From contig JAPYKE020000268.1 of NCBI GenBank assembly GCA_028554795.2, forward strand, positions 124,001 to 188,000: a stretch of 64,000 bases of DNA. Direction: 5' to 3'. Below are positions 12,719 to 63,230 of this stretch, piece after piece (position 1 is the first letter of the stretch; the number at the start of each line of letters is the position of its first letter). The notes beneath the pieces are model-generated. The model was given only the letters and a program-made list of their open reading frames with translations, was not told the DNA's origin and did no database searches. This DNA is from Sinohyriopsis cumingii (Eukaryota; Mollusca; Bivalvia; Unionida; Unionidae). A program made the position numbers and the translations under genes.

Positions 12719-12720
<2 letters not shown>

Positions 12721-26879: not shown

Positions 26880-27010
26880 GAAGTTAAAAGAAATCAGCCT
26901 ATCTTATTGCTATCGAGATCTCTAGAAAAGAGACTATTCAATTTGCCAATGTACATGAGTGTAGAGTAGTATGATTATAAACATTCCTTTACTGATGTGA
27001 TTGTGTGAGT
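26880..27010 (+). promoter_or_regulatory. Degraded histone-type 3' region and conserved block (element A)
   Basis: AATCAGCCTATC (about 26892) is where element B has its hairpin after gene ii; the hairpin is lost here, but the downstream CTCTAGAAAAGAGACTATTC is kept (about 26921-26940). GTGTAGAGTAGT and CTTTACTGATGTGATTGTGT follow, the same block as 50735-50790 in element B. Confidence 0.55.
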
Positions 27011-27931: not shown

Positions 27932-27948
27932 TGTCCTTTTTAAGGACA
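27932..27948 (+). terminator. Hairpin at the position of the arm gene iii 3' stem-loop (element A)
   Basis: TGTCCTTTTTAAGGACA is a perfect inverted repeat standing exactly where element B has its histone-like stem-loop (51985-52000). The shared downstream context is TCATATGCCTCGAAAAGA here and TCATATACCTCGAAAAGA in element B. The histone consensus itself is no longer met, and the register of pairing differs. Confidence 0.5.
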
Positions 27949-34500: not shown

Positions 34501-34541
34501 GTCTCTCTTTTCTAGAGATCGAGTTAGCCGTGAGAAGGGCT
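34501..34541 (-). terminator. Histone-type 3' stem-loop with downstream element, left gene ii
   Basis: Minus strand: AGCCCTTCTCACGGCT (34526-34541) has six stem positions each side with one C-C mismatch and a TCTC loop. It is followed by CTCTAGAAAAGAGAGAC (34501-34517), a purine-rich stretch like the U7-binding downstream element of histone genes. It stands after arm gene ii, as in the right arm. The consensus histone loop is TTTC, so this copy has drifted. Confidence 0.6.
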
Positions 34542-35103: not shown

Positions 35104-35109
35104 CTCAGC

Positions 35110-35350: not shown

Positions 35351-35414
35351 TAACTTTTTACCTACAGACAAACACACACATCACACACACACTATCTTTC
35401 AAGCAAGGGAAACT

Positions 35415-35434
35415 AAGTGTTTATAGGTACACTT
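35415..35434. promoter_or_regulatory. Covarying palindrome, left arm, copy 2
   Basis: Minus strand AAGTGTACCTATAAACACTT, the second of two copies in the left arm. Like the other three it is followed by a TTCC(C/T)TT or TTTCC-like tract. Confidence 0.65.
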
Positions 35435-35493
35435 CTAATTGTAAACCAACCAACACACAAAGACACACATTTTGGCAAGATAATATTCATCTT

Positions 35494-35787: not shown

Positions 35788-35789
35788 GT

Positions 35790-36640
35790 GTTCTTCGTTC
35801 AGTGTTCAGACTAGTTAGTTAATTTAAATTTAAGTGGTTTTCGCACAGTCGTGCACTGTTTTCTGCCTACACGGTAGGCTGTTTAATTACTCCACCAGGC
35901 TTTTAAGTGCTCACGGAGTACTGTTTAATTGAAGCAGTCAGGCAGTGGGACTAAAATTAGTACTAACTGTTTGAACGGTGGGCTTGAAGGTGAGTGTATA
36001 ATTTTACCAGACTGAGAAACCGTAATCAATATATTAGCCATACATGTTAGAATCAGTAAAATTGGCGAGGCACAAATCCTACAGGCTATACCATCTACTT
36101 AACGTATCTGATGAAAGTTTACGTAGACGAAAGAGACGGAGAAATGAGGATGGGTAGAAACGTTGTATTCTTTGCGATACGTTTGATCATCAGAGACAGC
36201 AAGAACATTTAAGTGGCATTTAAGCAGGAACCATATAGTACAATACAGAAGTTAACAGTAAACGTTTGCAACAGTGACAAAAAACATTCAAATAGTCTAT
36301 ATAACGTATTCAGGGAGAGCATTTATTTCTGACAAGAGCGTCACTAAAATACCCTCCTGACCGTTTTAGAGGTACGTTAAACCCAAAGGAGGGTTCTGGT
36401 TCACTTTTCGGTCATATCAAAGGGGTTTTGGGCTCACTTCTTCGTGATCACCACGGTGACCGAGTGGTTTCTGGCTTAAAGTGGGTTTTTATATCTTTGG
36501 GGGGATGAGCGAGTGTGTGATTTGAGTATCGGTTGAATATCAAAGGACACAAACCTTTCTTGTTAATGATCGTAGGGAAGATTTGGTGTAGTTTTGATCG
36601 AAAGGTTACCATGGAATAGTAAATCATGTGACCATGTAGC
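35790..36640. other. Left arm to polymerase spacer
   Basis: No gene is seen. It holds short inverted pieces such as GCACAGTCGTGC (about 35848) and GCCTACACGGTAGGC (about 35865), and further on a stretch with GGGTTCTGGTTCACTTTTCG. It may contain polymerase 3' sequence or regulatory sites. Confidence 0.4.
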
Positions 36641-43322: not shown

Positions 43323-43921
43323 TTGTATCTTCGCCATCCCTTTAAAATGTCAATTGCTGGGCCTAGCGGTTCAGGCAAAACCGAATTTGTCAAACGTTTG
43401 ATCGAACATAAACATCATTTGATCGATCGTTCACCTCAACGAGTCGTGTGGTGTTACAAAGAGTGGCAATCGGCGAACAGTCTCTGGCGAGAAAGTCAAG
43501 GCGATTCCATCGTGTTTGTGGAAGGCATTCCTAACGAAGGCGACGGAAAGGGGTCTGACCCCAGTCAAACCAATCTGGTCATTTTTGACGACATCTTATG
43601 AGAAGACAAAGAAGAAATTAAACTGTGGTTTATGCGCAAAGGGCATCATCGTAATGCAAGTGGCATTTACATTACTCAAAATTTGTTTCAACAAAGTAAA
43701 TACCATCGCACCATCAGTCTTAATGCTCATTACGTGATCTTATTTAAAAGCCCTAGAGATAAATCGCAAGTGCAAGTCTTAGCCAAACAGTTAGGAACAC
43801 CTTGGCTGACTCATGCGTACGACAATGCCACTCAAACCACACCACACACCTATCTACTCTTTGATATTAAACCCACTACCACCGATTATTTGCGATTTCG
43901 TACCCATTTGTTTCATCACTA
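43323..43921 (+). pseudogene. FtsK/HerA-type genome-packaging ATPase with one stop
   Basis: The Polinton/adenovirus-type (A32-like) packaging ATPase, which would drive DNA into the capsid. Visible are LRHPFKMSIAGPSGSGKTEF (Walker A), VVWCYKEWQ, NLVIFDDIL (Walker B), then a single TGA at about 43599. The frame then continues unbroken with KLWFMRKGHHRNASGIYITQ, NLFQQSKYHRTISLNAHYVI and SPRDKSQV to the end at 43921, giving about 199 residues, a normal length. The first ATG in frame is 43347; conserved residues before it (YLRHPF) suggest the true start was at 43323, now TTG. One stop in about 200 codons makes this one of the best kept genes of the element. Confidence 0.85.
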
Positions 43922-45345: not shown

Positions 45346-46458
45346 GTGGGTGACTTATTAAAAATGGAGATGGTGCTAGCCAGCATTTATTACAATCCAT
45401 CCCGTCCTGCAGGTTACGGAGGAGTTCAGAAATTATATCGTGCTGCCAAAACTCGACTGAAAAGTCTCCGTTTACCTCAAATGCAACGATGGTTACAAGA
45501 ACAAGCTACCTACACTTTACACAAACCGATTCGACGAACGTTTTCCAGAAGTCTCACGTAAGTGGAAGACATCAATCATCAATGGCAAGCCGATTTAGCC
45601 GATGTCTCTCATTTGGCCACCTACAATCGTGGTTACATTTATTTGTTTTGTGTCATAGACGTCTTTTCCAAATTTGCCCGGATCGTGCCATTGACATCCA
45701 AATCGAGCAGTGAGTTAGTGTGAGCCATGCAACGGGTGTTGAAACAAAGCGGTCGTCACCCTCTTCGATGGCAAACTGACAAAGGCACCGAATCTCTGAA
45801 CCAAGCTTTCAAAATAGAATTAAAGAAACGTGACCATCATTTATTCACCGCCGAGAATCCCGAAACCAAAGCTAGCATTGTGGAACGTTTTCAACGTACT
45901 TTGAAAGAACGCGTGTGGAAATATTTTACCCATCACCACACTCTCAAGTACATAGAATTGTTACCTCACTTGGTTCAAGCGTACAACCAATCTTACCATC
46001 AAAGCATTGGACGTGTCCCCCAACAAGTGACTCACGCCAACGAAGTGCTGATTTTCGTGCGCCTGTTCGGTACGTCCCCAACGGTGACTGTCCCCAAGAA
46101 AAGTGGAGTGTTGACGATAATAGATTGGGTACGCACTGGCAAAACCAAACGGTTACTTACCCACCTGGACCAACGAAATTTTCGTGTCACTGGACGAGTG
46201 CATGGTCGTCATCCTGCCGTGAATACACTGGAAGACATGAACGGGGAAGTGTTTAAAGGAACCTTTTACTTGCCTGAGTTACAACGCGTGACAAAACAAG
46301 AAGACTACGTGTGCGACATCGAAAGCATTCTCGAGCGCAGAACCCGAAAAGTGGGAAAACCCCGTGTCAAAGAAGTCAAAGTACGTTGGAAAGGATATCC
46401 ACCCAGTTTTGATTCTTGGATCCACGCTTCGCAAGTCATCGACTATAAAGAGAGGTGA
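45346..46458 (+). pseudogene. Retroviral-type integrase with C-terminal chromodomain
   Basis: This is the Polinton integrase (DDE family), which would insert the element. In order: YYNPSRPAGYGGVQKLYRAA and TYTLHKPIRRTF (N-terminal region), TAA at 45559, HQWQADLADV (first Asp) with YNRGYIYLFCVIDVFSKFAR, TGA at 45721, RWQTDKGTESLNQAF (second Asp), TKASIVERFQRTLKERVWKY (Glu) and YNQSYHQSIGRVP. A chromodomain-like end follows: DIESILERR, VKVRWKGYPPSFDSWI. From 45727 to the stop at 46456 the frame is completely open, 243 codons. Only two nonsense changes and no frameshift are seen, so the protein decayed late. The chromodomain suggests targeting to modified chromatin. Confidence 0.92.
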
Positions 46459-46463: not shown

Positions 46464-46901
46464 ATGCCCTTCCACACAACCTCAGCTACCTCTACCACTG
46501 CAGCGACCACTCCTTCAGTCAGTTCTTCTCTGCAAGATCTACAAAATCAACCCTTGTGGGTGTGGTGTGGAGAACGTGTGCCTAAAAGGAAAATCGTCTT
46601 TTTCTGCCAAATCTTTGTGGTGTATTGTGTCATCTGTGCAGCCATTGCCAATTTCAGTTTGCAACAAGGAGACAAACAACTGTGGACCATTTTATTGGGC
46701 AGTTGCATCGGTTACCTTCTTCCCAATCCGTCCCTGAAATACTCCTCGAACGGCAACAACGGTAATCTTGCGTCCAGTGTCAGTCACCACTCCAACAACA
46801 ACAATCCCATTTTGGGAGGAGACACTCCTCTCACTACCAGTTACGCCTCAGACAGCCACAGAACTCTAGAATTATGTACCATAACAACCAATTTTACTTG
46901 A
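46464..46901 (+). CDS. Two-helix membrane protein typical of Polintons
   Basis: An intact frame; ATG 46464 lies 5 bases after the integrase stop. A Thr/Ser-rich N-terminus is followed by PLWVWCGERVPKRKI, a hydrophobic helix (VFFCQIFVVYCVICAAIANF), NFSLQQGDKQLW and a second helix ending in GSCIGYLLPNPSLK, then an Asn/Ser-rich tail. The VPKR, GD.LW and GYLLPNP segments match the membrane protein found beside the penton gene in many Polintons. The end overlaps the penton start by 28 bases. Role unknown; membrane modification or an inner virion membrane is conceivable. This is the only core gene without a visible lesion. Confidence 0.75.
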   Translation: MPFHTTSATSTTAATTPSVSSSLQDLQNQPLWVWCGERVPKRKIVFFCQIFVVYCVICAAIANFSLQQGDKQLWTILLGSCIGYLLPNPSLKYSSNGNNGNLASSVSHHSNNNNPILGGDTPLTTSYASDSHRTLELCTITTNFT

Positions 46902-47771
46902 CGTTACCCAGTGACAGTTCCATAGAGGTGTTTCTCCATAACACGTTGTGTTGTTGCACGGCCGAATTATCTCAGGCTTTCCAATTAGATCACGAAGCCC
47001 ATTGGGAAGTGGCTTTGGTGCAAATGATTTACCCTACACAAATCAAAACATCACTGAAAAGCAAAACAATTTCCAGGTAGAAATCCTGAACGCTCAATTG
47101 CAAGACGAAATAAATAAAATTGGGTTTTCAGGGGACACCAAGAAAGCAAACAATCCATTGTTTAGCATCTACACGTTGAAAAGTCCTTCAGGTTATTATT
47201 TTAGTGGTGAACGTTTGGAGGACACTATTGCGGACAGGCTCGACTTGGTATTTGGCCAAAAGAAGTGTTAAGATTGAGTATCATAAAGTGGATCGTCGCC
47301 TCATGATCAAATTTCAGGATACCGAAACATTGTCCCTCAGGTTTAATGGTAGTTTATTTGAAATTTTGGGTGTACATCCACAGATGGTAGCACACAATTT
47401 TAGCCACAAGATCAACAGTAATATAGATTTTTATAGGGCTTTTGGATCCCCGGTAGAACTGAACGAAGGACTTAATTTGATCTTTTTGCACTCCGATGAG
47501 GTGGAGTACAACGTGGTGGGACACAACTCCGTGCCGTTACTGCGCGTCATTCCTTTCAATGTGGATAGTATCACGACCAATGACCAGAAAGGTGGAAACA
47601 CCTATCACATTCACCGCGAATTTATTCATCATCACCATTTGACCGTCAGTAAGTCGTATTTCGACACTGTCAACATTAATATAAAAGGAGATCTGGGACA
47701 GAATATTCCATTCTCCAAAGGTAAAAGCACGGTGAAACTCCATTTTCGAAAACGATTATATAACGAATTGC
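46874..47771 (+). pseudogene. Penton-like minor capsid protein (element B)
   Basis: From ATG 46874: NQFYLTLPSDSSIEVFLHNT, HWEVALVQMIYPTQI; a frameshift near 47040; NNFQVEILNAQLQDEINKIG, IYTLKSPSGYYFS; another shift near 47265; then a long clean frame with LRFNGSLFEILGVHPQMV, LIFLHSDEVEYNVVGHNSVP, REFIHHHHLTVSKSYFDTVN and STVKLHFRKR. The FY.TLPS start, the WEV.L.....YP element and the C-terminal LHFR are hallmarks of Polinton/adintovirus penton proteins (single jelly roll at capsid vertices). Two frameshifts, no nonsense change in the long third segment. Confidence 0.85.
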
Positions 47772-48214: not shown

Positions 48215-49136
48215 ATGATGCACCGAGAGTCTTAGCCTGTTCCAAGTCAGAACTGGTTCTGTTTGCTATGCCGCCTACCATGATGACAATGCAAGAATCC
48301 CAATGGGTCGAATTTCATCCCATCGCCTTTTTGACCGCCGCAGCTCCCAACGAGTTTGAAATCAAAGGACAGCCCGAAGATTACATTTATCTGAACAGTA
48401 GTTACTTGTATTTGAAAGTCAAAGTGAACGATTCGGATGGTAGCGATCTAGATGTCGATGAGGCAGTAGCTCCTGTCAACGATTTCATGCATTCCTTGTC
48501 CAGCGAAGTGGGCTTGTACTTGAATAACAAACTGGTCAGCAGCAGCATGGATGCAATCATTACCTGTGAAGAAAAACAACACAAAAATGGATGCCTGGGT
48601 ACTTTATTACCCTTTGAATCACAGTTTGTAAACTGCTTCTTGGAATCCTGTCATGTGTGCTAAAGATGAACAACCTCAGCGCAAACCTCAAGACCATCAA
48701 GCTTATGTCATCAACACGGACGGCAGTCGTCTCCCTGGAACCGTCTACGTTCCCCGTGATGGTTGTGTGGAGTATTTTAATTGTATTGATTGCCCCCTTT
48801 GGAAGACGATATCATTGACTTTATGAGAAGAAATGCTCAGACAACAGGATTCGATAACGTAAAATTACAAGGCACAGATTCCATGGTGTGTGAATAATAT
48901 TGTGTGTATTTTCTACACTAACACAGTCTTTGATATTCTTTAGATCATTTAGTGATATTTTGATCGTCATTCTTCGAGAAACGATGAGAAAGTAGATCAA
49001 TAGTTTTGTGACCATTATGGCTATCTTTTGTCATTAACTAGAAAACGTAGTGTACATCAATGGCCCAATGACTTCCAACAGTGGAGGTCTAGGTTCACTT
49101 CACAACGTTTCATCCTTGTCCAAAATAGATGGTGAT
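48215..49136 (+). pseudogene. Major capsid protein, shortened (element B)
   Basis: ATG 48215 (MMHRES) meets a TAG; the frame is restored by a one-base loss and runs as LFAMPPTMMTMQESQWVEFH, PNEFEIKGQPEDYIYLNSSY, LYLKVKVND, VAPVNDFMHSLSSEVGLYLN and NKLVSS. This is the N-terminal jelly roll of the double jelly-roll capsid protein (F54H12.2-like in animal genomes). After 48663 further pieces follow in other frames (KPQDHQAYVINTDGSRLPGT; a C-terminal GGLGSLHNVSSL near 49090). Total length is about 300 codons against 500-650 usually, so the middle has been deleted. Element A has lost even more of the same part. Confidence 0.85.
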
Positions 49137-49207: not shown

Positions 49208-49213
49208 AATAAA
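49208..49213 (+). terminator. Poly(A) signal after the capsid gene (element B)
   Basis: AATAAA in GGAATAAAAATGTGTTTTGA, 70 bases after the capsid stop, matching the signal at 26185 in element A. It contrasts with the histone-like 3' ends of the arm genes. Confidence 0.6.
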
Positions 49214-49339
49214 AATGTGTTTTGAAGAAAAAATGCTTCTGTCGTTTGAGTGCATTTATATAATGAACCATACTCTTTAACTTTTCTATCTCTCATATCA
49301 GCATATTTTAGCGTTCCGATTCTACACAGTGTAGTGATG

Positions 49340-49410
49340 TTTTCGATCGCTTCCGCGCTTGAACAATATAAAGCGGGGTATTCTCCAGTCTGACCATCCA
49401 TTGTTAACTC
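49340..49410 (+). promoter_or_regulatory. Promoter of arm gene i (right arm)
   Basis: GTTTTCGATCGCTTCCGCGC, then GAACAATATAAAGCGGGGTA (TATAAA 49367-49372), CCAGTCTGACCATCCATTGT. It keeps the layout of the shared arm-gene block but is its most diverged member. Confidence 0.65.
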
Positions 49411-49421
49411 ATCCTCCCGTG

Positions 49422-49787
49422 ATGATGTGCTCAAGATTAGCCAAGCTGAACGAAGCTTACGTGAATTTGCATCGTGTCAGGCAAAGTCTGATACCGATGC
49501 CTGAAGAGATAGAGATTGTCAAAATGTTGAAAGTAACTGAAGACCTGATAGAAGATCTCTTCAGAGAGGAAATCAACAAGGAGAAAGAAGAATGGACGGA
49601 GAAGTACAGACTTCAGAAACAGCAGAGAGAGAGAGCAGACAGAGCAGCAGCAGCAGCAGCAGCAGTAGGAACCAGACAAAGCTTTTGTCGACTGCCGTGT
49701 CGACACCAAATAGTTCTCCTTCTCTTTCCGAAGAAGCAGACACTATTCTGTGGGAAAGCCTGCCGCCAGACGAGGACTCAATTTTAG
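49422..49787 (+). CDS. Arm gene i, right arm copy (element B)
   Basis: An intact frame. ATG 49422 is preferred because the TATA box lies inside any longer frame. The product (about 121 residues) has RLAKLNEAYVNLHRVRQSLI, MLKVTEDLIEDLFREEINKE, WTEKYRLQKQ, an Ala run from a CAG/GCA repeat and a Cys-containing C-terminus (FCRLPCRHQ, FPKKQTLFCGKAC). Its mirror-image paralogue is at 35494-35787. A related motif (VTRHL...VAMNLVKDMVEEEV) appears in arm gene iii at about 51500, so i and iii may share ancestry. A predicted coiled coil; no known family. Confidence 0.65.
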   Translation: MMCSRLAKLNEAYVNLHRVRQSLIPMPEEIEIVKMLKVTEDLIEDLFREEINKEKEEWTEKYRLQKQQRERADRAAAAAAAVGTRQSFCRLPCRHQIVLLLFPKKQTLFCGKACRQTRTQF

Positions 49788-49827
49788 ATCATAAATGATT
49801 GCCATAGCTCTGCGTCCACACAAAAGC

Positions 49828-49867
49828 AGCCCTTTTCAGGGCTACCCAATACTCTAGAAAAGAAATG
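49828..49867 (+). terminator. Histone-type 3' stem-loop and downstream element after arm gene i
   Basis: AGCCCTTTTCAGGGCT (49828-49843): a perfect 6-bp stem, TTTC loop and a conserved G at stem position 2, flanked by ACAAAAGC and ACCCA. It matches the metazoan histone consensus GGCYCTTTTCAGRGCC apart from the outermost base pair. CTCTAGAAAAGAAATG (49852-49867) follows 9-12 bases later, like the purine-rich histone downstream element bound by U7 snRNA. It starts 40 bases after the stop codon. Confidence 0.8.
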
Positions 49868-49919
49868 CTAATTCAATTGTCAATGATATGTTAGTCAGTT
49901 AGAAAGAAAAACAAAACAG

Positions 49920-49939
49920 AAGTGCGTCTATAAGCACTT
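49920..49939. promoter_or_regulatory. Covarying palindrome, right arm, copy 1
   Basis: AAGTGCGTCTATAAGCACTT: arms AAGTGC and GCACTT. The left arm has AAGTGT and ACACTT at the same place. Confidence 0.7.
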
Positions 49940-49959
49940 AATTTCTTTATCTTTGTTAG

Positions 49960-49979
49960 AAGTGCCAGTATAAGCACTT
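49960..49979. promoter_or_regulatory. Covarying palindrome, right arm, copy 2
   Basis: AAGTGCCAGTATAAGCACTT, 40 bases after copy 1 and followed by CGTTTCCG. Confidence 0.7.
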
Positions 49980-50107
49980 CGTTTCCGTAGCTTATCAAAC
50001 TTTTTAATTAGTTATTGTCAGTACAAAGGTGAGTGCGTTTTTCTTTTACGTCCGCGCAATCCATGTTTCCTTTGGGGCAATGATATGGTCTTGTACGTTT
50101 TGGTGTC

Positions 50108-50185
50108 AGGGGATGTTTTCCTTCACGTCCGTGTCTGACATTTATAAAGGGAACGCTCGTCAGTCTGGCTACACATTGTCAATGA
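50108..50185 (+). promoter_or_regulatory. Promoter of arm gene ii (right arm)
   Basis: AGGGGATGTTTTCCTTCACG, TCCGTGTCTGACATTTATAA (TATAAA 50143-50148), AGGGAACGCTCGTCAGTCTG, GCTACACATTGTC. This is the clearest member of the block shared by five other sites. Confidence 0.8.
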
Positions 50186-50197
50186 GACAACAAGAAG

Positions 50198-50632
50198 ATG
50201 AGCAGAATTAGCTAATTGATTGAACTCCAGATGCATCTGGAATATACCAGGCGGCTCCTAGATGAGCTGGCAATGGAGGAAATCGAAGAGAAAGCCATGA
50301 TAGAGAAGGAAGAGAAGAGGAAAAAGAAGAAAGAGACAGAAGGAAAAATCCTACCTCTCATCATGCTGAGGCAAAGGTGTGAGGTAAAGCCTATTGCGAA
50401 GACGCTTCCACAGGTAGCACCAGCACAAGCACGACAGCAACAGCCACAACAACCACAACCACAACCTGACCAACGAAGAGAACAACAGCATCCACGGCTC
50501 TGGAACAGACAGAGTGAAGTCTTCAGGGTCCCACAAACAGAAGCTTGGGATTCCTCTGCGATCCCAGCTACACATACCAATTGGGATAACGATTGGGGAG
50601 TGGTCGTTGTGTCTGCGGCGTTAGATCTGTGA
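50198..50632 (+). pseudogene. Arm gene ii, right arm copy, with an early stop
   Basis: ATG 50198 is followed after five codons by TAA (50213-50215); from there the frame is open to 50632. It reads IELQMHLEYTRRLLDELAME, a Glu/Lys-rich helical run, ILPLIMLRQRCEVKP, a Gln/Pro-rich segment (ARQQQPQQPQPQPDQ) and a C-terminus with TNWDNDWGVVVV. The left paralogue is at 34728-35103 and a remnant lies in element A at 26419. The product is probably largely disordered. A single early nonsense change may be the only lesion. Confidence 0.6.
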
Positions 50633-50674
50633 GATGTCATCATTAGCCAGGTGCATCTGAATTTTAAAAAACTC

Positions 50675-50714
50675 AGCCCTTTTCTGGGCTAATCAAAACT
50701 CTAGAAAAGAGACA
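50675..50714 (+). terminator. Histone-type 3' stem-loop and downstream element after arm gene ii
   Basis: AGCCCTTTTCTGGGCT (50675-50690): five pairs plus a T-T mismatch at the closing position, TTTC loop, preceded by TAAAAAACTC. CTCTAGAAAAGAGAC (50700-50714) follows as the purine-rich element. It starts 43 bases after the stop codon. Confidence 0.7.
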
Positions 50715-50734
50715 CTATTCAAATTGCCAATTTG

Positions 50735-50790
50735 TGTGAATGTGGAGTAGTGTGAATATAAAAACTCACTCCTTTACTGATGTGATTGTG
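50735..50790 (+). promoter_or_regulatory. Conserved block between arm genes ii and iii (right arm)
   Basis: GTGAATGTGGAGTAGTGTGA, then ATATAAAAACTCACTCCTTT and ACTGATGTGATTGTG. Twenty bases are identical to the left arm (34225-34300, minus). Confidence 0.65.
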
Positions 50791-51285
50791 TTTGTGAGTG
50801 TGTGTGTGTCTGTGTGTGTGTGTTTGTATGAGCTCATGTAGGTTTGTGTGGATAGTACATTATTGGGATTTGTAAGCGCTCACGTAATTTTGTGTGGATA
50901 GTAGAGTGTGTGGTGTTTTGTACATTTCCTTCTGTGTGGATGGCATAATTGGTTTTTTTTATCCTCGTGTGTGGAAAGTATATTTTTGTTTTGTTTCTTC
51001 GCGTGTGTGGGTATTATATTTGTGGTTATGTTTTGGGCTTCTTCCCGGTTGTGCATAGTAAATTTGAAGTTAGTTTTGGCAGCTTTTCGTGTGTGGATAG
51101 TATATTTTGGGCTTGTTTTTGCTTCTTCGCGTGTGTGGATAGTATATTTGTGATTAGTTTTGCTCATTCCCGTGTGTGGATATTATAATTGTGGTTAGTT
51201 ATTGCTTTTTTGCATCTGTGGATAGCAATATTTGTTTGATTATATCCTTTTCGTGTGTGGATAGTAGATAATATGTAAAGTGAGT
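50790..51285. repeat. TG-rich minisatellite of the right arm (element B)
   Basis: Units of about 60 bp with CGTGTGTGGATAGTATATTT and TTTTGCTTCTTCGC, after a short GT run. It is the counterpart of 27040-27860 in element A. Confidence 0.85.
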
Positions 51286-51287
51286 GT

Positions 51288-51360
51288 AGGGGATGTTTTC
51301 TTTCATGTCCGTATGACAAATATAAAGTCAAAGCGTTCGTCGTTCGTGCCATTCTACGGA
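51288..51360 (+). promoter_or_regulatory. Promoter of arm gene iii (right arm)
   Basis: GGGGATGTTTTCTTTCATGT, CCGTATGACAAATATAAAGT (TATAAA 51321-51326), AAGCGTTCGTCGTTCGTGCC. Same block as before gene ii. Confidence 0.75.
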
Positions 51361-51367
51361 ATAACCA

Positions 51368-51978
51368 ATGAAGAAGATGGCAACAGCCTCAGCTTTATTT
51401 AATAACTTGACGGAGTGATGGTATTGGATAGTTGATGGCTTCTATGTAGTGTAAAGGCTTGAGAAAGGAATGTAGGTATTCAGTTATCAAAGAGTTTGTC
51501 ACAAGACACCTAACAAGTCTCAATGTAGCCATGAATCTTGTGAAAGATATGGTAGAGGAAGAAGTGAAGAGATTAAGAGGCTTCATTCACCTTTAGTATG
51601 TGAGAGTGGGAACATATATATTGTCATGAAAGTCAAGGGTTAATTACAAGATATATTGTAATGGACAGAGTGGTCTTTTGTAAAATGCGGAATGGACCAG
51701 CTCAAGAAAGCAGAACTAATGAAAAAGGTAATGGAAAAAAGTAAAGAAAATTAAAGATAGCTGGGAAAAAGAGAGAGAAAGGAAAAGGAAAATATAAAGA
51801 AGAAGGAGGAGCTTGACAGACTGAACAAGAATTGGATGAAGGTCTAGGAAAAATTTAGAGCTATTGGCTATCCTGACTGGATGCCAGAGGATGAAGAGAA
51901 GAAGAAGAAAGGAATATTTGGGAAAGTCAGGATCTGGTGGAAGAAGTGAAGAAAAAGATAGAAGAAGAAGCAGAAGGA
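51368..51978 (+). pseudogene. Arm gene iii, right arm copy
   Basis: ATG 51368 opens MKKMATASALFNNLTE and meets TGA. Later pieces in other frames are CRYSVIKEFVTRHLTSLNVA and MNLVKDMVEEEVKRLRGF (about 51470-51590), then a Lys/Glu-rich coiled-coil-like part and GYPDWMPEDEEKKKKGIFG (about 51865) close to the end. The left copy at 33350-34000 matches the last part. The middle resembles arm gene i, suggesting a small gene family. Function unknown. Confidence 0.55.
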
Positions 51979-51984
51979 CCCAAA

Positions 51985-52024
51985 GGCCCTTTTCAGGGTT
52001 ACTCATATACCTCGAAAAGAAATG
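51985..52024 (+). terminator. Histone-type 3' stem-loop and downstream element after arm gene iii
   Basis: CCCAAAGGCCCTTTTCAGGG then TTACTCA: the stem-loop GGCCCTTTTCAGGGTT (51985-52000) equals the histone consensus with its flanks (AAAGGCYCTTTTCAGRGCC) except that the last two bases are TT, giving G-T pairs at the base of the stem. CTCGAAAAGAAATG (52011-52024) follows as the purine-rich element. Confidence 0.75.
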
Positions 52025-52204
52025 CTTTCTAGCCTGACAATTTTTGTTTTAGTCATTTGTATAAGTGTTTGTTGTATGTTGTTTATTGCATGTGTTATAT
52101 AAATCTAAGTCCCACTCTTTCTTCCCGATTCAGGTCAGTCCGGTGCACATCTGTTCCTACTCTTGTTGCAACATTTGTACCAATCTACCAGACCCTGACG
52201 TCAG

Positions 52205-52345: not shown

Positions 52346-54559
52346 AACGTAGATTATAGTATTGTCTAACGAATGCAGTAATAAAACAGATAATATACTG
52401 CATGCCATAATTAGCTTGCATTTCCTGATAGTAATAGGGGCACTTTGAAGGAAAAACATATGAATTTAACACACTGCGAACGACTCGAGTTTCCACTATT
52501 GTACCCTGATTATATTTTGCTCTTTAAAAGCTTGCCTTTAGGAAGATAAACCTATTTTTTGTTTTGTCATCTTTATAAAATTTCATGTTAAATTGAATGG
52601 ATTTGTTTATATATGCAAGTTTCCAACAATTACATTTTTAAACCAAACAACAATAGCAGCTAAGCATCATTGTATAACTGAAAAGATATCATAAAACGTA
52701 TGACTAAAAAACAATTATTTGTCCCAGAATATACAATGCACAACAGTTACTTTAGAACACAAATGATCCTATCCCAGCATATATGGTAAATACATTACAC
52801 ACATATCTGCATTCTCACACACAACATTCTTCGATGTTTTACTTCTATGTGCACCTGGTTTATTTTCATTTTTGGAAACAGTGTGAGCACCAAACTTAAT
52901 CGACAAAGTTAAATGTATATGAACATGTAATTTTTCAATAATCGAATAAGATAAATGAATTCACAATATCAGATTGCTTTCATAAAGGTGAACATTCATA
53001 GTATGTCCTCAGTCATTAGCAGTTCAACTTGAGCAGAAACCTATATTGTATTACCTCGTCATTTCAGTTTGTCTCTTTCCTGGTCAAAATGTCATGTTAC
53101 GGCTGTGAAATTCACGCTTCTGATCCATTTTCAACCAGACATGAAATATGTGTTGATAACATAAAAACGCATCTACAAATTTGATAATGAACAAGATGTT
53201 TGCATGTTAATGAGTTACTTTTGCATATGGTTGAATAACGATATCTCGTTGGAGGCCATACTTCCAAAACAAATTATGTTTTTACTTGGTATATATGAAG
53301 ATATTATTGAACTCATAGACGAGTTAAAAAATTAACACCATGAATACATTCCATTGACGTACTCTTGCATTTTATTGGCCAAAATTAGTACCACTCTGTG
53401 GGCCATATTTCTGATCCAATTTGAATCAAACATTAAGTATATACATGTACCTCTGTAATCGAAGTTGAGTTCGTAATGAGTAAGATCTATGCATATCACT
53501 GGGGTAATCTTGTATGTGATTGGCTGAAACTGTTACGACTTAGGAGGTCAAATATATTTGGAATATAAACTTATCATAATCAAGGTTTGTGGCAATTTAG
53601 ACAATTAACAATATACATGTATATTATTGGTTTGATCTAGCATCTTATTAGCAGAACTTGTTGCCACTCTGCGAGCCGTATTTTTGATATAATTTTGATG
53701 AAACGTGGCAAAACGGTTCTACTTTTACTCTTCTTTTATATACTATGTTTCGGCAAATATACATGATTTAGCTTATTATTTATTGTAATTTATTTTGTGT
53801 TTCTGATGGGATATTTGGCTGTAAAACGTTTTAATTATGACAGGTGCTGATCTATATTGCTAAATACACTGTACTTGGTTACAGTCAGTGTAGAAACCAT
53901 AATTGGAACATGCTTGTTATTGTTATACTATAAATACGGTGTAATATGTCTATGAACTGTACTTGAAACATATACGTTGCTGTTCGATTGTATATATAGT
54001 TAATAGTACATATGTTTGTGTTGTGGTCGAAATATTATGCTGATTAAAGAAATGTTTTTAATTTTATTGTACGTTCGTTTATAGCTATGTCGAAGAATAA
54101 CGTGTTATGACATTTACATACTGCTCACATTAAATAGCCAATGTCTTTCTTCCTTTTCCATCCTCATTTTGTCAACAATTTACACAATGCCCTACACAGT
54201 TCAATTAAAGTTTATCGTATCTTTTTTCCTGTGTCTCTTCGCTTCTTTACCAGCACTTTCGCTGCTCAAGTCTGTGTTTAATGTACCGAATCAAAATGTT
54301 GTTTAAACACTTGATTACGACTAATCAATACTTTGAAATTGATGTCGTTTGAACTCTTTCATCCACCATGTATTCACGAATACGGTATTTACTTTTTTTG
54401 TTGTAAAGGAGACGAACTTAATAGGCAGTTGGCTTTTGTTTAAATCTTGTAGTTTCTTTATCTTACACTCATTAATCTCCAAAACGAGATTTACGAAACA
54501 AAAATATGTCAAAGATAAAAGCCTCGTTCAACAAAATGTGTGTGTATTTTTGTGTGCGT

Positions 54560-54850
54560 GTGATTAGGATCTTTAACATAATTGTAATTTTTTTCAGTCA
54601 TATTGCTACCATGTCAGCAGTGTGGCAGTTTATAATGATGTCCAGTACCGAGGCATCATGTTGCACACATGTAGCATCATGTCCCACCCAGCCACATTAT
54701 CATGACACCGGGTCAACCTGTCCTAGCATTAATCTCTTAATGCTGAGCGCCAAGAGAGGCAGCTGCTAGCACCATTTGTATAAGTCTTTGGTTCGAACTC
54801 GCTACCCGTATCCGACGAGGGACGCTCTCACCACTTAGGTCACTGGAGCA
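54560..54850 (-). repeat. SINE, orthologous to the one at 11960-12260
   Basis: The same insertion in the second copy of the block, nearly identical over the tRNA-like head (GTTCGAACTCGCTACCCGTA on the plus strand). It shows the SINE predates the duplication. Confidence 0.75.
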
Positions 54851-55239
54851 GTTTTAGGGAAATGAAACAACTTACATTATAAAACCAATTACTAATATCG
54901 TTTTACACACCTTTTATTGAAATATTTTCACAAATGGCCTCAGGGTAATTAGCTCCCGCTTCATTTGATTTAATTATAAAACAGATTTGATGTGTTAAAT
55001 CCAAGATAACCAAATGAGATGCTGTTACGTTCTAAACATACAAAGAAAATGATCAAAACAATTTACAGTGGATACAGTCTTATAGTTGGATAAATGGCTG
55101 GTGTATGTATTTCCGTTTTGTATATATGTTGTACATATAAAGCATCAACGGAACCATGCAGGATAAGCAAAACATTTATAAAACAAGAAGATGTTTTGAC
55201 AATACGTACGAATAAGAGACTTTGCGAAAGAATACAGTT

Positions 55240-56697
55240 TATTTTCTAACGGTGCATATATATGTTGAGGTTTCCATTGACAACTTCAGCACATAAAAGT
55301 ATAATATTTCAAGCTTACAATAATGGTCGGTAATGAGTTTGGAGAAACGGACTTCTCAGTTATGAAGCAAGTTTTAGGAAATATATATAAGATTTTGTCC
55401 TCTAAGGCAAAACAATTGATCAGATAATTTGTATTTTAAAAGTAAAGAGTTCTAGATGAAAGAGTTCTAGATGTAACTAGAATAAAATGTACACGTGTCT
55501 ATGTTTGCTGTAATTATTCATTTGGATCATCATGTTTCAGCTTAACTTTGTAATCACAATTAATTGCGGGAAATAAGATATGTTCATTTCTTCCGTTCAA
55601 ATATTCTCCTGATAAGTTTTATATGAACGAATGAATGATAAAAATAAGCATTAAGTCCCATGTTGTGATGTCACTTTCGTATTTGTTCTTTTATTTTCAA
55701 TAAAACCAGTAACTAACTACCTCACATTCCTTGTATTTATTTTACATCATTACCGATCTCAAAACATGGCGATATAGGCAGTGAGTGAACCCAAGCATTA
55801 TATATCTTTTCTAAGAGGTTCAAAATAAAAAAAAAACTCATGTAAACGGAACTATTATCTAAGGAATAAATTTAGCTAAGAAAGTGGTCGAGCTATTTTA
55901 TGATTTCTAGGAATAAATGAGTAACGCTGAGGTCACGTTTCCATCGCATATTGTTGATCGTTCGTTGATTTTTTTGAATCTGCGGTTAGAAGCGCCCATA
56001 TAATTTTTTTTTCAACTTTGTACTCAGCGAAACATCACGCCAATAAAATTACAAATGTGAACAGTTATAGAACGACACTATCATCAATGATCCACGTGTA
56101 TTTATAAATTTTTTCCTTTAGTTACTGGTAACTACTATACAGTCCGTTTTCCATATTTTTTATCCATTCTGGAGGTACTGCAACATTTCCAACCTCATAT
56201 AATCATTAGGCATCTTGCTCCTGTAAAATAAATGGAGTGTTTTATTTTATCATCTTGATTTCTGGAGACCAACAATAGGATAACTTTCATGTCATATCTT
56301 TCACCGTTACAAGGGCCTAGAATAGTTATAGAGACCATAATCATCATCCCTATGATTATATTCTAATATATAGCAACTCTAGACGTTTCACTTATTAATA
56401 GCTGAATTAAGAATTATTTTTGTCATAAATTTAACTAGTTCATAATTAATTTTGTTTTTGGTACTTGTGTGCTGTATAACTGAACATAAACACGTGAAGG
56501 GCTATATTGCATAGAACAAAATTCCTTGTCAATGTAACTTCTATTGGCTGCGTATCACGTGCCTGGTCTGAGAAGAATTTAAATCTACAGCTTATGATGT
56601 TAACGAGTTTGACAGGGTAAGAATTGTTGGTTCCAACTCACCTAATTCTAGTATTCGGAAACACACTGTCCTTCAATACACCACTTGAAAAAAGAAT

Positions 56698-56738
<41 letters not shown>

Positions 56739-56768
56739 TCTCTCGCTCTCTCCCTCTCTCTCTTTATA

Positions 56769-56847
<79 letters not shown>

Positions 56848-57150
56848 TCGTGTGTGTATGTTTCTGCATTTATAATAGAAAACATAATTTCAGAATTCCT
56901 TCCGGTTTCTGTTAACTGCTTCTTAATGGATTAACTGTCAAGAGGCTCACGTTCCTGCTAACAAACCAAATTTACGTGGTAATTTTTGGAAAACATCATT
57001 AAATGCTTTGCAGTCTTTATTGATTCACAGTTGGTCATCATTTGCTTTAAACGTATAACTTATTTTTCTCACGGAATTTTCTTTTGCTAGAAATTGCCAT
57101 CAAAACATCGGGTAAATAAATTTTGTATAACTTTGGAAACCAGTTTTAGT
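55240..57150. other. Segment present only in copy 2 of the block
   Basis: It is bounded by AAGAATACAGTTT on the left and TAGAGAAAAAGAGAAAG on the right; in copy 1 these flanks are joined by a TA run (12661-12718). It contains TA runs and a short CT/GA tract at 56740-56765. No gene is recognised. It is either an insertion in copy 2 or a deletion in copy 1. Confidence 0.6.
56701..56845. repeat. (TA)n microsatellites flanking a CT tract
   Basis: TA runs at 56701-56738 and 56767-56845 separated by CTCTCGCTCTCTCCCTCTCT. The open frames in it are artefacts. Confidence 0.9.
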
Positions 57151-58235
57151 TCTGTAGAGAAAAAGAGAAAGGGATGAATTACCTTACGTGATCCACATTG
57201 GGTTCCCCTAGCTGCAATATAGTAGGCCTTTGGGCAAATGCGTCTTTTTGGTTCAAAGCATCTCATCAATTGACAGATGTTTCCCATAGAAGTCTTTAAA
57301 ATAAGATATAAAATTAGGTATAGCTTTAAGTGTCTGGCATAACCAGCCACTAAGTCGAATGTTTTAGTCTTAAGCAATATTCTTATGATTGCGAAACTCA
57401 CAAGCAGGGTTCTATTCCCGATGACTGTATGTAAAGAATGTAATATTTGATAAACAGTCTATAACTTCTGTCGGTCTTGGGAATATGATAACTAGATTCG
57501 GGTAGTCCATTTTACGTCATTATGGCGGGAGGAATATGTCTCTTGGTTGCTCTGCTGTTAACTGGATTTTTCTTTAATTTTCTTTTTAAACTCTAATGAG
57601 CAAATATTCTAAACATCCGATTTGTTATTTTGTGTTGTGTGACTAGACACCGCGTAACCCAGATTTCAGTTTGGAATTACTCTACCTGTTGAAGTTTGAA
57701 TTCGGAAAAGGGGATCAGATTCCTGCTAAACTGCTAATAGTTGGCCCATCATTCCCTGTGGATCTTGCTCTAAAACGTTGTACTTTAGTAGATTTCAGAT
57801 TTGTGGTTTGGATAAAACTAAAATTTATATTCGAAGGTGCCTGATTTCGTGGATATCTTATTTTTTTTAAAAAAAAGCTACGATGCAAGTGTATCTTTGT
57901 AAGGTTACTGTTATAGCAACATTTAGTTTATGTGCGAGCGATCAGAATTAATCCGTACTGCATATATTAATTTGGGTAATTACGTTATTCATTGATAACA
58001 TCTTGCGTAAAAGCGGTGATGTGAAATAAAACCCGACCTTTCCACTCTTGAGGTAACACATTACAACCACTATTGTAACGTGAGGTAATTAGGTTCTCAC
58101 GTGCTTGAAAGTCCGCTATTAAATCATAAAATTTTAATAATTACGAATTAGACGCTTGTACAAAACAAATGACTAAATCAGACAAGAATGCCAACATGGA
58201 TGTGGGGACCCACTCTTTTGGGGCGACCTTGATCT

Positions 58236-58238
<3 letters not shown>

Positions 58239-58269
<31 letters not shown>

Positions 58270-58282
58270 GTGTGTGTGTGCG
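58239..58282. repeat. (GT)n microsatellite
   Basis: A GT run; copy 1 has only a short interrupted version at 13826-13863. Confidence 0.85.
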
Positions 58283-58651
58283 TGTGTGATTTAGAGTTAC
58301 GACATTTTTATTATGGAAACGGTTGATGGTAACCTCTCAAACTGCTAACGTCATCATATCAAAAATAAATAAACAGTTATTAACATGGAATTCATACCAC
58401 TGAATACGTTTATTTATTTCTATTTCTAACTGCAATGCTGACGAATTGAATTCCATATGGATAGGAGATATTTAGATCTAGCATTGATTTATATATGTGA
58501 TCATAAAAGTAAATAATGAACTCATATTAGTAGAGAATACAATGTATGTCCCAGCGACATTCTTGTTTATAAGCTATAGTGACATATGTTTTATTCCATT
58601 TGGATGATTTGATAATAAACATCACCCAATTACCAAGTTTTATCATTGTAG

Positions 58652-58948
58652 GTGATAAAGCATGAACGCATACCACGTAACCCCAAATATTACGGTAAAA
58701 ATTTAAATGCAGAAACAAAAGCAGAGCCAGCATACTATAACATTATACCCACAAGAGGCTTGTTTTGTTGTAAGACTGTGGCAATAGAAGATATGCATGT
58801 CATCGTCTATTTCGCTATGCTAGCACTAATAATGTATGCCCAATCGACATTACACAGCAAAGACAACACGCAAGTTAGTGAGGCTTTCAATATGGGCCAT
58901 AACGTCAAGCTACTGACTTGTGGTATTAGTGATCATTATGGACGATAA
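58652..58948 (+). CDS. Hypothetical frame, counterpart of 14291-14605
   Basis: An open frame of 98 codons sharing RGLFCCK, AIED and HVIVYFAML with copy 1. It stops earlier because of a TAA after HYGR. It has the same acceptor-like TTTATCATTGTAGGTG upstream. Not recognised. Confidence 0.25.
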   Translation: MIKHERIPRNPKYYGKNLNAETKAEPAYYNIIPTRGLFCCKTVAIEDMHVIVYFAMLALIMYAQSTLHSKDNTQVSEAFNMGHNVKLLTCGISDHYGR

Positions 58949-60333
58949 GGACGACCTTCTAGCTACGTGTATAATTAGAGATGCTATAAAATGGTCTTAG
59001 TATGCCAAAAGCCCTACTCGCGATGAGTTGAATGCAAAAATAAAATCTCCATTATTGAAATGTAGGTCACAGTATTCTATTTTCTATTTTTCAGTTAATG
59101 ATTCGATAAAAACAGTAAAACGTACGAAATACATACAAAGTCATGGATATGTAAAATGTTGGTCACAATCATCGCCCCTGTTTTATGAATGTCTCACTCA
59201 ACAAGGTGCATAATCTAAACAAATTTCGTAACTAAATATAAAACAGTATTATTCTGGAGATAGAGAAAACCGATTGGTCATGAGCTAAACACAAACAGTG
59301 GCATAATCCTGTATATATGAAATTATGAGCACATCGTCCTTCTTTTCTTGAAAGGATGAGATACTAACGAGATGCATATAATCACCAAGTTTGATGACTC
59401 GGGACACTCAGTGCACGATATTGAACCGAAGTCGAGGTAGTATGAAATATGAAACACATTTACCTACTTTAGTGATGTTTGGATGGTACTTGTAACGATA
59501 CATCTCAAAACATTTTGCTGTAACGGTATGAATACAAGTTTTAAAACACTATCTGATTATGAACTAAAGTAAAAATATAACCTCAACATTTATGATGCGA
59601 AACGTAGGTTCCCATGGCTTTCTTTTGGTGTTAAGGTATGATCCTAAATGAGACCCATGCCTCAAATTTTATGATTTACGTATGGGCAGAGCTGGGGAAA
59701 TAGTCTTTTAAAACAACATTCAAAACATCAGTGAATCGCAAAACTTGGGTAAGAGCAAAATAAATTCGAAACGAAGTACGTGTCAAGATGCATCCCCCTC
59801 ACTATGTCTCATGAGCTAGCCATAGCAGTATGTAACTGAATACAATCGGTGCAAACACTAACTTTTAAGTAGATGAATTGCTTTAAATTCTTACCGAGCT
59901 TTTGTCAAAACCAGCTTTAAAATACGATATTATTTATACGAGCGTGCTTGTTGACTTTAGCGAATTAATCTTTAAGCTGAATAAAAATGGTAACTGTAAA
60001 TATATCATTATTTTATGAACGTTTAGGTGCTTAATGAAATCTTTGTGGATGCAACAGTTTGGTTTCAGTGTTCTAAGGCGGTATGTGTATATTTTTTCCT
60101 GATTTTGTTAATCCATTTTTGGCTTCTGCGAGCAAATGCAGCTCTAATTATATCATTGTAAATATAACCAGGGAATAGATTTTCCGGAATAGTCTTATGT
60201 CAAGCTTCTCTGTCTTAAAATCAGATCGGTAAAGGTGTATCTTTTACTGTTCCTCTGACATAATATAGGTGACAGGTCTTACATGTGATAATATTAATTC
60301 AGCGTATGTTATGCACGTTTTGTTGCACCATAT

Positions 60334-60519
60334 ATGTATATTTGTACGTTCCCTGTACTAGAAAATGCTTTTGTCTGTATTGTATATCTATTATATGCGC
60401 TGTATTACATCATATGTTTTGCATGTTATGATGGAGCAGTGTATTATCAATTTGGTTTGCTTCTTCAATGTGAGGATAAATTAAAATCTTTGTTTTCAAC
60501 GATCCATGTAATAAAATGA
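60334..60519 (+). CDS. Hypothetical hydrophobic frame, counterpart of 15874-16074
   Basis: An open frame of 61 codons with ENAFVCIVYLLYALYYIICF. It extends further than copy 1 because one stop is absent. Probably not a gene. Confidence 0.12.
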   Translation: MYICTFPVLENAFVCIVYLLYALYYIICFACYDGAVYYQFGLLLQCEDKLKSLFSTIHVIK

Positions 60520-60748
60520 ATTTCAGTCCTCAATGTGCACATAGCTTGTATATATCTTACATTTGTAATCAATATATGTTCCGTTACGACTTTCATGTTG
60601 CTTTCCATTAGACGCAGGTAATATGTTTGAGTGGTTAGTAATTATCAGAGATAAAAATAATACCATGATTATAATACAAATAGCCACAACAACAACTTTT
60701 TGACACGTTTAAAGAGTCAATGTTAATAAATGTTTTGTTAGGCAGTTA

Positions 60749-61162
60749 TTGAGCTTCCGGTCACACATGTTGCATCGAGGCAAAACTAAGCAAACAAGCT
60801 TCCATCTGCAACTACTCATCGCTCTACTTCGATCGGATTTGTTTCATTGTGGTTCATGTTTTACCGTCATTTCTAGTCCAGCTATTAGGTTACAACGCCT
60901 GTATTTTGGAGACAAACACCCAAAGATGGTTACATCCGCTCTAGTTTCCAAATATAACACTGCCTCTGAAGCATTGAGGCGCATCACAAACTTCTGCGAA
61001 CAGGAACGTTTTGTTCTGGTACAAAATGCGACGTCAGTCAACCCTGCGTGTCTGAAGATATCCATCGGATGTTCTTACAATAACTCTGCTATAAAAAACA
61101 CCAGTGTGTTGTTAAATCAAAGCATCGTAGTTGGGAATAGTTTGGGATTTATAAGCGAATGA
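60749..61162 (+). CDS. Hypothetical frame, longer counterpart of 16534-16755
   Basis: An uninterrupted 137-codon frame with LHRGKTKQTSFHLQLLIALL, SEALRRITNFCEQERFVLVQ and CSYNNSAIK. Copy 1 has a TAG at the position matching about 60890. No domain recognised. Confidence 0.3.
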   Translation: MSFRSHMLHRGKTKQTSFHLQLLIALLRSDLFHCGSCFTVISSPAIRLQRLYFGDKHPKMVTSALVSKYNTASEALRRITNFCEQERFVLVQNATSVNPACLKISIGCSYNNSAIKNTSVLLNQSIVVGNSLGFISE

Positions 61163-61340
61163 TCATTCGTATTAAATATTAAAACTTATGCTTAACAAAG
61201 AGCTCAGCCTACATCTCGGATTAGTAGCACATGCACAAGTGTACAATTGAATACCACTTAATTTAGAGCAGTCCGCCATATTCCCAATTGTTCGCTAAAA
61301 GCACATACAACAACGCATACATACACACACAACCTAATAC

Positions 61341-61613: not shown

Positions 61614-62990
<1,377 letters not shown>

Positions 62991-62994: not shown

Positions 62995-63230
62995 GATTTG
63001 TGTGAATGTTCCAACAGAGACTTTCACCCAGTGTCGACTCTTACCACCTCAGTGTCTGACGAGTTTGTTATCAAAGGACCAACCAAAGTTTACATTGATC
63101 TGAATAATAAATGGTTCACGCATCTGAATGACAAAGCTTCAATACTGACACCTTTAATATAGCACCGATGCTACAGTTACGCTTGTTAGAAACTTCAAGC
63201 ATTCCATATTCAGTATAGTGTATTTATTTT
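62995..63230 (+). pseudogene. Major capsid protein fragment of a third Polinton
   Basis: The frame to 63162 contains NRDFHPVSTLTT, DEFVIKGPTKVYIDLNN and LNDKAS. This aligns with WVEFHPIAFLTA, NEFEIKGQPEDYIYLNSS of the capsid gene of element B (about 48305-48420). After a frameshift the next piece reads VTLVRNFKHSIFSIV (about 63170-63220), matching VAPVNDFMHSLSSEV. It is the N-terminal jelly roll only. No other element gene was found near it, and it is more diverged from element B than element A is, so it represents another lineage. Confidence 0.7.

What the first reader, a model, noticed from the sequence alone, without database searches (positions are those of the whole stretch)
49828..52024. 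Histone-mRNA-type 3' stem-loops end the arm genes of a Polinton
Seen: three successive small genes in the right arm each end, 5-45 bases after the coding region, in a 16-nt hairpin matching the replication-dependent histone 3' stem-loop (AGCCCTTTTCAGGGCT, AGCCCTTTTCTGGGCT, GGCCCTTTTCAGGGTT). Flanks such as CCCAAAG and ACCCA also fit, and 9-12 bases on comes AGAAAAGA(A/G)A, like the U7-binding histone downstream element. A fourth, drifted copy follows left arm gene ii. Known: this stem-loop is bound by SLBP and gives non-polyadenylated, S-phase mRNAs. Inferred: the element couples its arm genes to the host DNA-replication phase while its capsid gene uses AATAAA. I know of no description of this in Polintons.
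Basis: partly seen in the sequence, partly recalled or inferred. Interest (0 to 1): 0.9.

Follow-up and report, generated by a model that had tools for sequence, protein, structure and literature searches.

The report
Histone-style RNA endings in a Polinton
A decayed virus-like mobile element (a Polinton) ends three of its small genes with the RNA hairpin and trailing signal that animals normally use to end histone messages, which suggests, but does not prove, that it tied those genes to the host cell's DNA-copying phase.

Summary
The three hairpins exist at the stated places. Each lies 28-35 nt after an arm-gene stop codon (hand count), with AAAAGA exactly 14 nt further on. Rfam Histone3 matches two (26.9 and 26.6 bits; E 0.0022 and 0.0029 over the window), below its curated cut-off of 34; the middle copy has a mismatched closing pair and is not listed. 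New: a second, decayed relative in the window carries the module twice, once broken, once with a still-paired stem changed at three of six pairs. A model from five copies finds the held-out sixth (E 0.0024); the next match has E 0.28. AATAAA/ATTAAA are absent from 49214-51749 (P 0.058). Best reading: a captured SLBP/U7-type 3'-end module giving S-phase messages without poly(A). This is resemblance, not proof: no transcripts, host U7 or intact relatives' DNA could be reached, and six integrase-bearing contigs from elsewhere, of uncertain arm cover, show no such module.

The parts
49422..49794 (+). right-arm gene i (A); reading frame broken inside its low-complexity tract and by an internal stop; ends at stop 49792-49794 in the frame shared with metagenome relatives
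   Evidence: homologues P0001-P0011; frames; tblastn with P0002
49828..49843 (+). hairpin A1R, AGCCCT-TTTC-AGGGCT, 6 of 6 pairs
   Evidence: RF00032 26.9 bits, E 0.0022
49858..49863 (+). HDE-like AAAAGA, 14 nt after hairpin A1R
50231..50646 (+). right-arm gene ii (B); ends at stop 50644-50646 in the frame of the C-terminus of P0132
50675..50690 (+). hairpin B1R, AGCCCT-TTTC-TGGGCT, one U-U mismatch at the loop-closing pair
   Evidence: not listed by Rfam at E<=10
50705..50710 (+). HDE-like AAAAGA, 14 nt after hairpin B1R
51480..51949 (+). right-arm gene iii (C), approximate start, heavily broken; C-terminal stretch shared with the left arm ends at stop 51947-51949
   Evidence: frames of right and left copies
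51985..52000 (+). hairpin C1R, GGCCCT-TTTC-AGGGTT, 6 of 6 pairs, two of them G-U
   Evidence: RF00032 26.6 bits, E 0.0029
52015..52020 (+). HDE-like AAAAGA, 14 nt after hairpin C1R
34526..34541 (-). hairpin B1L in the left arm, AGCCCTTCTCACGGCT, drifted; AAAAGAG 14 nt on
   Evidence: not listed by Rfam at E<=10
26896..26911 (+). hairpin place B2R of the second element, AGCCTATCTTATTGCT, stem broken; CTCTAGAAAAGAG kept, AAAAGA 14 nt on
27932..27948 (+). hairpin C2R of the second element, TGTCCTTTTTAAGGACA, stem paired with changes at three pairs against C1R, loop one base longer; CTCGAAAAGA kept. No gene iii coding part was recognised before it
   Evidence: (E 0.0024 with model R1, held out); RF00032 only 11.2 bits, E 3.8
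49208..49213 (+). AATAAA after the capsid/protease region; the counterpart in the second element is at 26185

Best explanation
The arm genes of this Polinton lineage carry a 3'-end module of the replication-dependent histone type. Most likely mechanism: host RNA polymerase II transcribes each small arm gene from its own TATA promoter. The 6-bp/TTTC hairpin, 28-35 nt after the stop codon, is bound by the host stem-loop binding protein, and the AAAAGA element 14 nt further on pairs with U7 snRNA. The U7 complex then cuts between them, giving a short message without poly(A) that accumulates and is translated in S phase, when Polinton DNA also has to be copied. The capsid/protease region ends instead with an ordinary AATAAA. 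Shown here: the sequence module, its fixed spacing, its reuse behind three genes of one arm, and its presence in a second diverged element. Inferred: SLBP and U7 binding, cleavage, absence of poly(A) and S-phase timing. Both elements are decayed, so this describes their active ancestors, not the present copies.
For: RF00032 E 0.0022 and 0.0029 for two of six copies over the whole window and 4227 families. 0 of 3000 shuffles of the arm give three such hairpins (threshold set afterwards). Hairpin-to-AAAAGA spacing is 14 nt in 6 of 6 copies. Position-2 G is kept in 6 of 6; that SLBP needs it is recalled. The coding parts of genes i, ii and iii show no blastn match to each other at E<=1e-4, while the 3' ends of i and ii (49827-49884 with 50674-50731) and of i and iii (49829-49869 with 51986-52026) match from within one base of the hairpin start; ii with iii gave no match at that limit. 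A second diverged element keeps the module at two places. The stem of C2R differs from C1R at three pairs and stays paired. No AATAAA/ATTAAA in 49214-51749. TATAAA lies before genes i, ii and iii of the right arm, at 49367, 50143 and 51321; the same string also occurs elsewhere in the arm. Animal replication-dependent histone genes share this layout: no introns, short UTRs, stem-loop plus purine-rich HDE, no poly(A) signal (PMC5011920, passages; PMC9756948, passages).
Against: Both Rfam scores are below the gathering cut-off. B1R and B1L are not listed at E<=10 and C2R has E 3.8. The copies are related by descent, so they are not independent. The two pairs changed on both sides both come from one sequence; 34 of 500 shuffles reach that. 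The poly(A)-signal gap has P 0.058 in element 1 and P 0.233 in element 2. Pairing with recalled human U7 beats shuffles at 0.05 in 2 of 6 copies only. The left-arm copies of genes i and iii have no hairpin. Six integrase-bearing contigs from other sources show none; their arm cover is uncertain.
Confidence: 0.66

Rival explanations
1. The hairpin arose once by chance or as a neutral structure and was copied to the other arm genes when arm units duplicated or converted; it has no SLBP/U7 role.
For: All copies are related by descent. Several are broken (B2R) or mismatched (B1R, B1L) while the AAAAGA block beside them is intact. Rfam scores are below the cut-off. Only 2 of 6 copies match RF00032 with a low E-value.
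Against: A chance hairpin would not be expected to match the histone loop, the purine element and its spacing, and the place just behind the stop codon, all at once. The coding parts of the three units do not match each other, while the 3' ends do. C2R changed on both sides of two pairs and stayed paired.
Confidence: 0.19
2. The hairpins are a virus-own transcript-end signal of another kind, comparable to the hairpin 3'-end signals of mimiviruses and their virophages (recalled), not read by SLBP and U7.
For: Hairpins right after stop codons in a virus-like element of the same broad lineage.
Against: The recalled mimivirus hairpins are longer and AT-rich, without a downstream purine element. 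Here the stem is 6 bp, the loop TTTC, and RF00032 matches. AATAAA after the capsid/protease region in both elements suggests use of host 3'-end machinery.
Confidence: 0.07
3. The module is a relic of a host histone gene end caught up during one integration event and merely carried along.
For: Strong likeness to histone ends; Polintons are recalled to pick up host genes.
Against: It sits behind three genes in one arm, behind gene ii in the other arm, and at two places of a diverged element, which points to upkeep, not one accident. No histone family was matched by the 10 window ORFs scanned with Pfam.
Confidence: 0.05

Closest known systems
Replication-dependent histone mRNA 3' end (Rfam RF00032 Histone3 plus HDE, SLBP/U7 pathway)
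   Same: 6-bp stem, 4-base TTTC loop, position-2 G, upstream CCAAA (C1R) and downstream ACCCA (A1R), purine-rich element after a short fixed spacer, close to the stop codon, no AATAAA/ATTAAA in 49214-51749, TATA strings before the genes.
   Different: No histone coding found for genes i and ii (gene iii not scanned); first pair A-U or G-U where the Rfam consensus has G-C; score under the gathering cut-off; processing, lack of poly(A) and S-phase expression not tested.
Polinton/Maverick and adintovirus-type elements
   Same: Integrase with chromodomain, packaging ATPase, minor capsid and a major-capsid fragment, inverted arms.
   Different: No paper in the held library holds both Polinton and histone stem-loop; six integrase-bearing contigs from other sources show no such module, with uncertain arm cover.
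Weak Histone3 matches reported in coronaviruses (PMC7786107, passages)
   Same: A virus sequence matching RF00032 by covariance model.
   Different: In SARS-CoV-2 14.7 bits, inside the nsp3 coding region, one copy; here 26.6-26.9 bits for two copies, at gene ends, several copies with the downstream element.

Membership tests
Replication-dependent histone 3' end (SLBP/U7 type) | 16-nt hairpin: 6-bp stem and 4-base TTTC/TTTT-type loop | tested here: met
   A1R and C1R fully paired, B1R 5 of 6 pairs; over six copies 86% of cells paired; the decayed copies B1L, B2R and C2R (loop of five) depart
Replication-dependent histone 3' end (SLBP/U7 type) | Score at or above the Rfam RF00032 gathering cut-off (34 bits) | tested here: not met
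   0 matches at gathering; best 26.9 and 26.6 bits
Replication-dependent histone 3' end (SLBP/U7 type) | Purine-rich downstream element at short spacing | tested here: met
   AAAAGA 14 nt after the hairpin in 6 of 6 copies
Replication-dependent histone 3' end (SLBP/U7 type) | Downstream element pairs with the host U7 snRNA | tested here: inconclusive
   host U7 not available; recalled human U7 5' end beats shuffles at 0.05 in 2 of 6 copies
Replication-dependent histone 3' end (SLBP/U7 type) | No nearby poly(A) signal | tested here: inconclusive
   no AATAAA/ATTAAA in 49214-51749 (shuffle mean 2.6, P 0.058) or 26192-28284 (P 0.233); but ATTAAA at 51750 inside gene iii, AATAAA at 52380, and several in the left arm; other variants not searched
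Replication-dependent histone 3' end (SLBP/U7 type) | Gene codes for a histone | tested here: not met
   genes i and ii match no Pfam family above its cut-off; gene iii not scanned
Replication-dependent histone 3' end (SLBP/U7 type) | Non-polyadenylated, SLBP-bound, S-phase message | not testable with these tools
   no transcripts or host cells; decayed copies
Polinton/Maverick | Integrase, packaging ATPase, minor and major capsid genes | tested here: met
   tblastn: ATPase 43332-43913, integrase 45364-46455, minor capsid 46874-47755, major capsid fragment 48244-48555; Chromo domain
Polinton/Maverick | Protein-primed DNA polymerase B | tested here: inconclusive
   a DTDS-type motif is seen by eye on the minus strand at about 36932-36921 (motif recalled); no Pfam or tblastn match
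Polinton/Maverick | Terminal inverted repeats | tested here: inconclusive
   pieces of 33366-35802 and 49446-51984 are inverted repeats at 73-93%; the element's ends and target duplication were not determined

The most novel reading that the evidence does not exclude
A virus-like animal element took over the histone 3'-end module and spread it over its set of arm genes, giving it an S-phase-locked, poly(A)-free early regulon beside poly(A)-type capsid genes. It would be the first non-cellular, non-histone gene set known to use the SLBP/U7 pathway, as far as the paper searches and my own knowledge go.
Probability: 0.54. Interest if true: 0.87.

Novelty: new variant of a known kind. Interest (0 to 1): 0.74.

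Why it matters
Metazoan histone messages are described as a unique class that ends in a stem-loop instead of poly(A) (PMC12775136, start of abstract in the listing). A mobile DNA element that used the same ending would show that the pathway is open to non-histone genes. It would offer a concrete account of how a Polinton times its genes to host DNA replication, and give a simple sequence tag to look for in other Polintons and adintoviruses.

Tried and rejected
Relatives' DNA: integrase, arm-gene and capsid queries against viral contigs gave no confirmed relative. Genome contigs gave none for the arm gene and 6 of 14 candidate stretches for the integrase (L001-L006, inside bacterial MAG records, 3.0-13.4 kb). 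None of the six holds the module. Their ORFs were read for L002 and L004 only: L002 stops about 0.8 kb after its last core gene, L004 goes some 2.8 kb beyond; arm cover of the rest was not established, so this is weak evidence of absence. DNA-pattern scans of viral contigs: searches gave 2 and 13 stretches. L007 and L008 were read and the match lies in phage-like coding sequence. L009-L021 were checked for the 16-mer and by tblastn with four Polinton queries only: 2 of 13 have six pairs and carry the same sequence, none matched a query; taken as chance. Searches gave 0. Phage and plasmid collections: no match, except one IS3 transposase at 25%.

Considered and rejected: mir-297/snoRNA Rfam matches at 34413-34483 are TG repeats. 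Gene iii reading through the hairpin in another frame: the C-terminus shared by both arms stops before it. Human U7 pairing as proof: not significant in 4 of 6 copies.

Papers: histone stem-loop with Polinton 0; with transposable element 0; any two of SLBP, non-histone mRNA, histone-like stem-loop, Maverick 0. Other listings (with 25 of 143 shown, 53, 57, 71, 76, 94 with 15 of 17 shown) showed nothing on this in titles or abstract starts. Of four papers I saw passages only; none was read whole. An adintovirus paper looked up by DOI is not held.

Full report
What is there. The window holds a decayed Polinton (element 1) between about 33.4 and 52.3 kb (ends not determined). tblastn with proteins of other Polinton contigs places the packaging ATPase at 43332-43913, the integrase at 45364-46455, the minor capsid gene at 46874-47755, a truncated major capsid gene at 48244-48555 and a weak protease trace at 48784-48915. 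The integrase carries a Chromo domain. The arms are diverged inverted repeats with three small genes, i to iii. Gene i has 11 relatives at E<=0.1 among 160 candidates in the protein collection and gene ii has one among 462. Gene i of the right arm is shifted in frame inside its low-complexity tract and has an internal stop; gene iii has many stops.

The hairpins. AGCCCTTTTCAGGGCT (49828), AGCCCTTTTCTGGGCT (50675) and GGCCCTTTTCAGGGTT (51985) end the three right-arm genes, and AGCCCTTCTCACGGCT (34541, minus strand) ends left gene ii. In the frame that each gene shares with its relatives or its other-arm copy, the stop is 33, 28 and 35 nt upstream (hand count). AAAAGA follows the hairpin after exactly 14 nt in six of six copies.

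Chance. Of 3000 shuffles of the arm, 89 gave one or more such hairpins, 2 gave two or more and 0 gave three; the similarity threshold was set after seeing them. By the same rule the whole window holds 5 on both strands, two of them elsewhere, against a mean of 1.0 and a maximum of 5 in 100 shuffled windows. A search for hairpin plus AAAAGA at 12-16 nt finds only these three in the window; shuffled windows give 0.5 on average and 4 of 200 reach three. Rfam RF00032 matches A1R and C1R with E 0.0022 and 0.0029 over 64 kb and 4227 families, both under the gathering score of 34. That list also has a TG-repeat artefact at E 0.0011. Searched alone in 161 bases, B1R and B1L are not listed at E<=10, and C2R scores 11.2 bits, E 3.8. 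B2R was not searched alone.

A second element. Self-comparison shows a related decayed element 2 at 1-2869 and 24699 to about 28.7 kb, 76-80% identical in its long core pieces and about 66% in the arm; the gene i region is missing, and no match to the gene iii coding part is listed. After gene ii the hairpin place is broken (AGCCTATCTTATTGCT) but CTCTAGAAAAGAG stands unchanged. Where the end of gene iii would be stands TGTCCTTTTTAAGGACA, followed by CTCGAAAAGA. Against C1R its stem differs at three of six pairs (G-U to U-A, G-U to G-C, C-G to U-A) and stays paired, though its loop is one base longer. On the structure-fitted alignment of six copies, 2 of 6 pairs show a change on both sides, both from this one sequence; 34 of 500 shuffles reach that. 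A covariance model from the other five copies finds it with E 0.0024; the next best match in the window has E 0.28.

Layout. At E<=1e-4 the coding parts of genes i, ii and iii do not match each other, but 3' ends do, from within one base of the hairpin start: 49827-49884 with 50674-50731 (81%) and 49829-49869 with 51986-52026 (88%); genes ii and iii gave no match at that limit. TATAAA stands before the right-arm genes at 49367, 50143 and 51321, and also at other places in the arm. No AATAAA or ATTAAA lies in 49214-51749 (shuffle mean 2.6, P 0.058), which runs into gene iii, nor in 26192-28284 of element 2 (P 0.233). The nearest later ones in element 1 are at 51750 and 52380. AATAAA follows the capsid/protease region in both elements, at 49208 and 26185. 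In the left arm, genes i and iii lack the hairpin, and AATAAA occurs at 35282, 34213 and further places.

Meaning. Animal replication-dependent histone genes lack introns, have short UTRs and end in a stem-loop plus a purine-rich downstream element without a poly(A) signal; the element pairs with U7 snRNA and cleavage gives poly(A)-free mRNA (PMC5011920 and PMC9756948, passages). A bivalve's histone mRNAs have the stem-loop close to the stop codon too (PMC6210712, passage). The arm genes fit that layout in sequence. I therefore take the module as an SLBP/U7-type 3' end used by the active ancestors, which would tie arm-gene expression to S phase. The tie is inference: the recalled human U7 5' end pairs with the downstream region better than shuffles at the 0.05 level in 2 of 6 copies only, and no transcript was seen.

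Limits. The copies are related by descent and decayed. Relatives' DNA beyond six contigs in MAG records could not be reached; those six have no such module, but their arm cover is uncertain. The window's own genome did not complete (19 calls), so the host, its histone ends and its U7 are unknown. Among the 120 integrase relatives listed of 544, the only ones with an organism name are three Saccostrea (oyster) proteins at 44-47%.

Novelty. In the held library no paper carries both histone stem-loop and Polinton, nor histone stem-loop and transposable element. A weak coding-region Histone3 match in coronaviruses is in print (PMC7786107, passages).

Noticed in passing
1-2869 and 24699-28700: A second, decayed Polinton related to the first, with 21.8 kb between its two recognised parts; it lacks the gene i region.
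   Followed up: partly
62317-62505: An integrase fragment of what looks like a third Polinton near the right end of the window (52% to P0012); a short match to the capsid region lies at 63059-63104.
   Followed up: no
9762-16776 and 52346-61183: A segment of about 7 kb, in two pieces, present twice at 85-87% identity; one copy starts just right of element 1, the other lies between the two parts of the second element.
   Followed up: no
50087-50133, 51288-51312, 35155-35201, 34040-34075: A shared block (about GGGGATGTTTTCCTTCACGTCCGTG) shortly before TATA-like strings of arm genes in both arms.
   Followed up: no
50724-50731 and the matching places in other copies: A second conserved box, TTGCCAAT in three of six copies and similar in the others, 13 nt after AAAAGA in B1R.
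   Followed up: no
33366 and 51984: Ungapped homology of the left and right gene iii regions stops at the last base before the hairpin, so the left copy seems to have lost the module cleanly.
   Followed up: no
27000-27910 and 50800-51280: Stretches of degenerate TGTGTGGATAGTA-like repeats after gene ii in both elements.
   Followed up: no
L001-L006: Polinton-type integrase contigs inside bacterial MAG records (tubeworm endosymbiont, Nomurabacteria, Limnohabitans, Ignavibacteria), which looks like eukaryote DNA in bacterial bins.
   Followed up: partly
49422-49794 (gene i), modelled on P0002: Predicted fold of a relative: two helices, one very long, then a beta hairpin (mean pLDDT 78, pTM 0.33). 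No fold search was run.
   Followed up: partly
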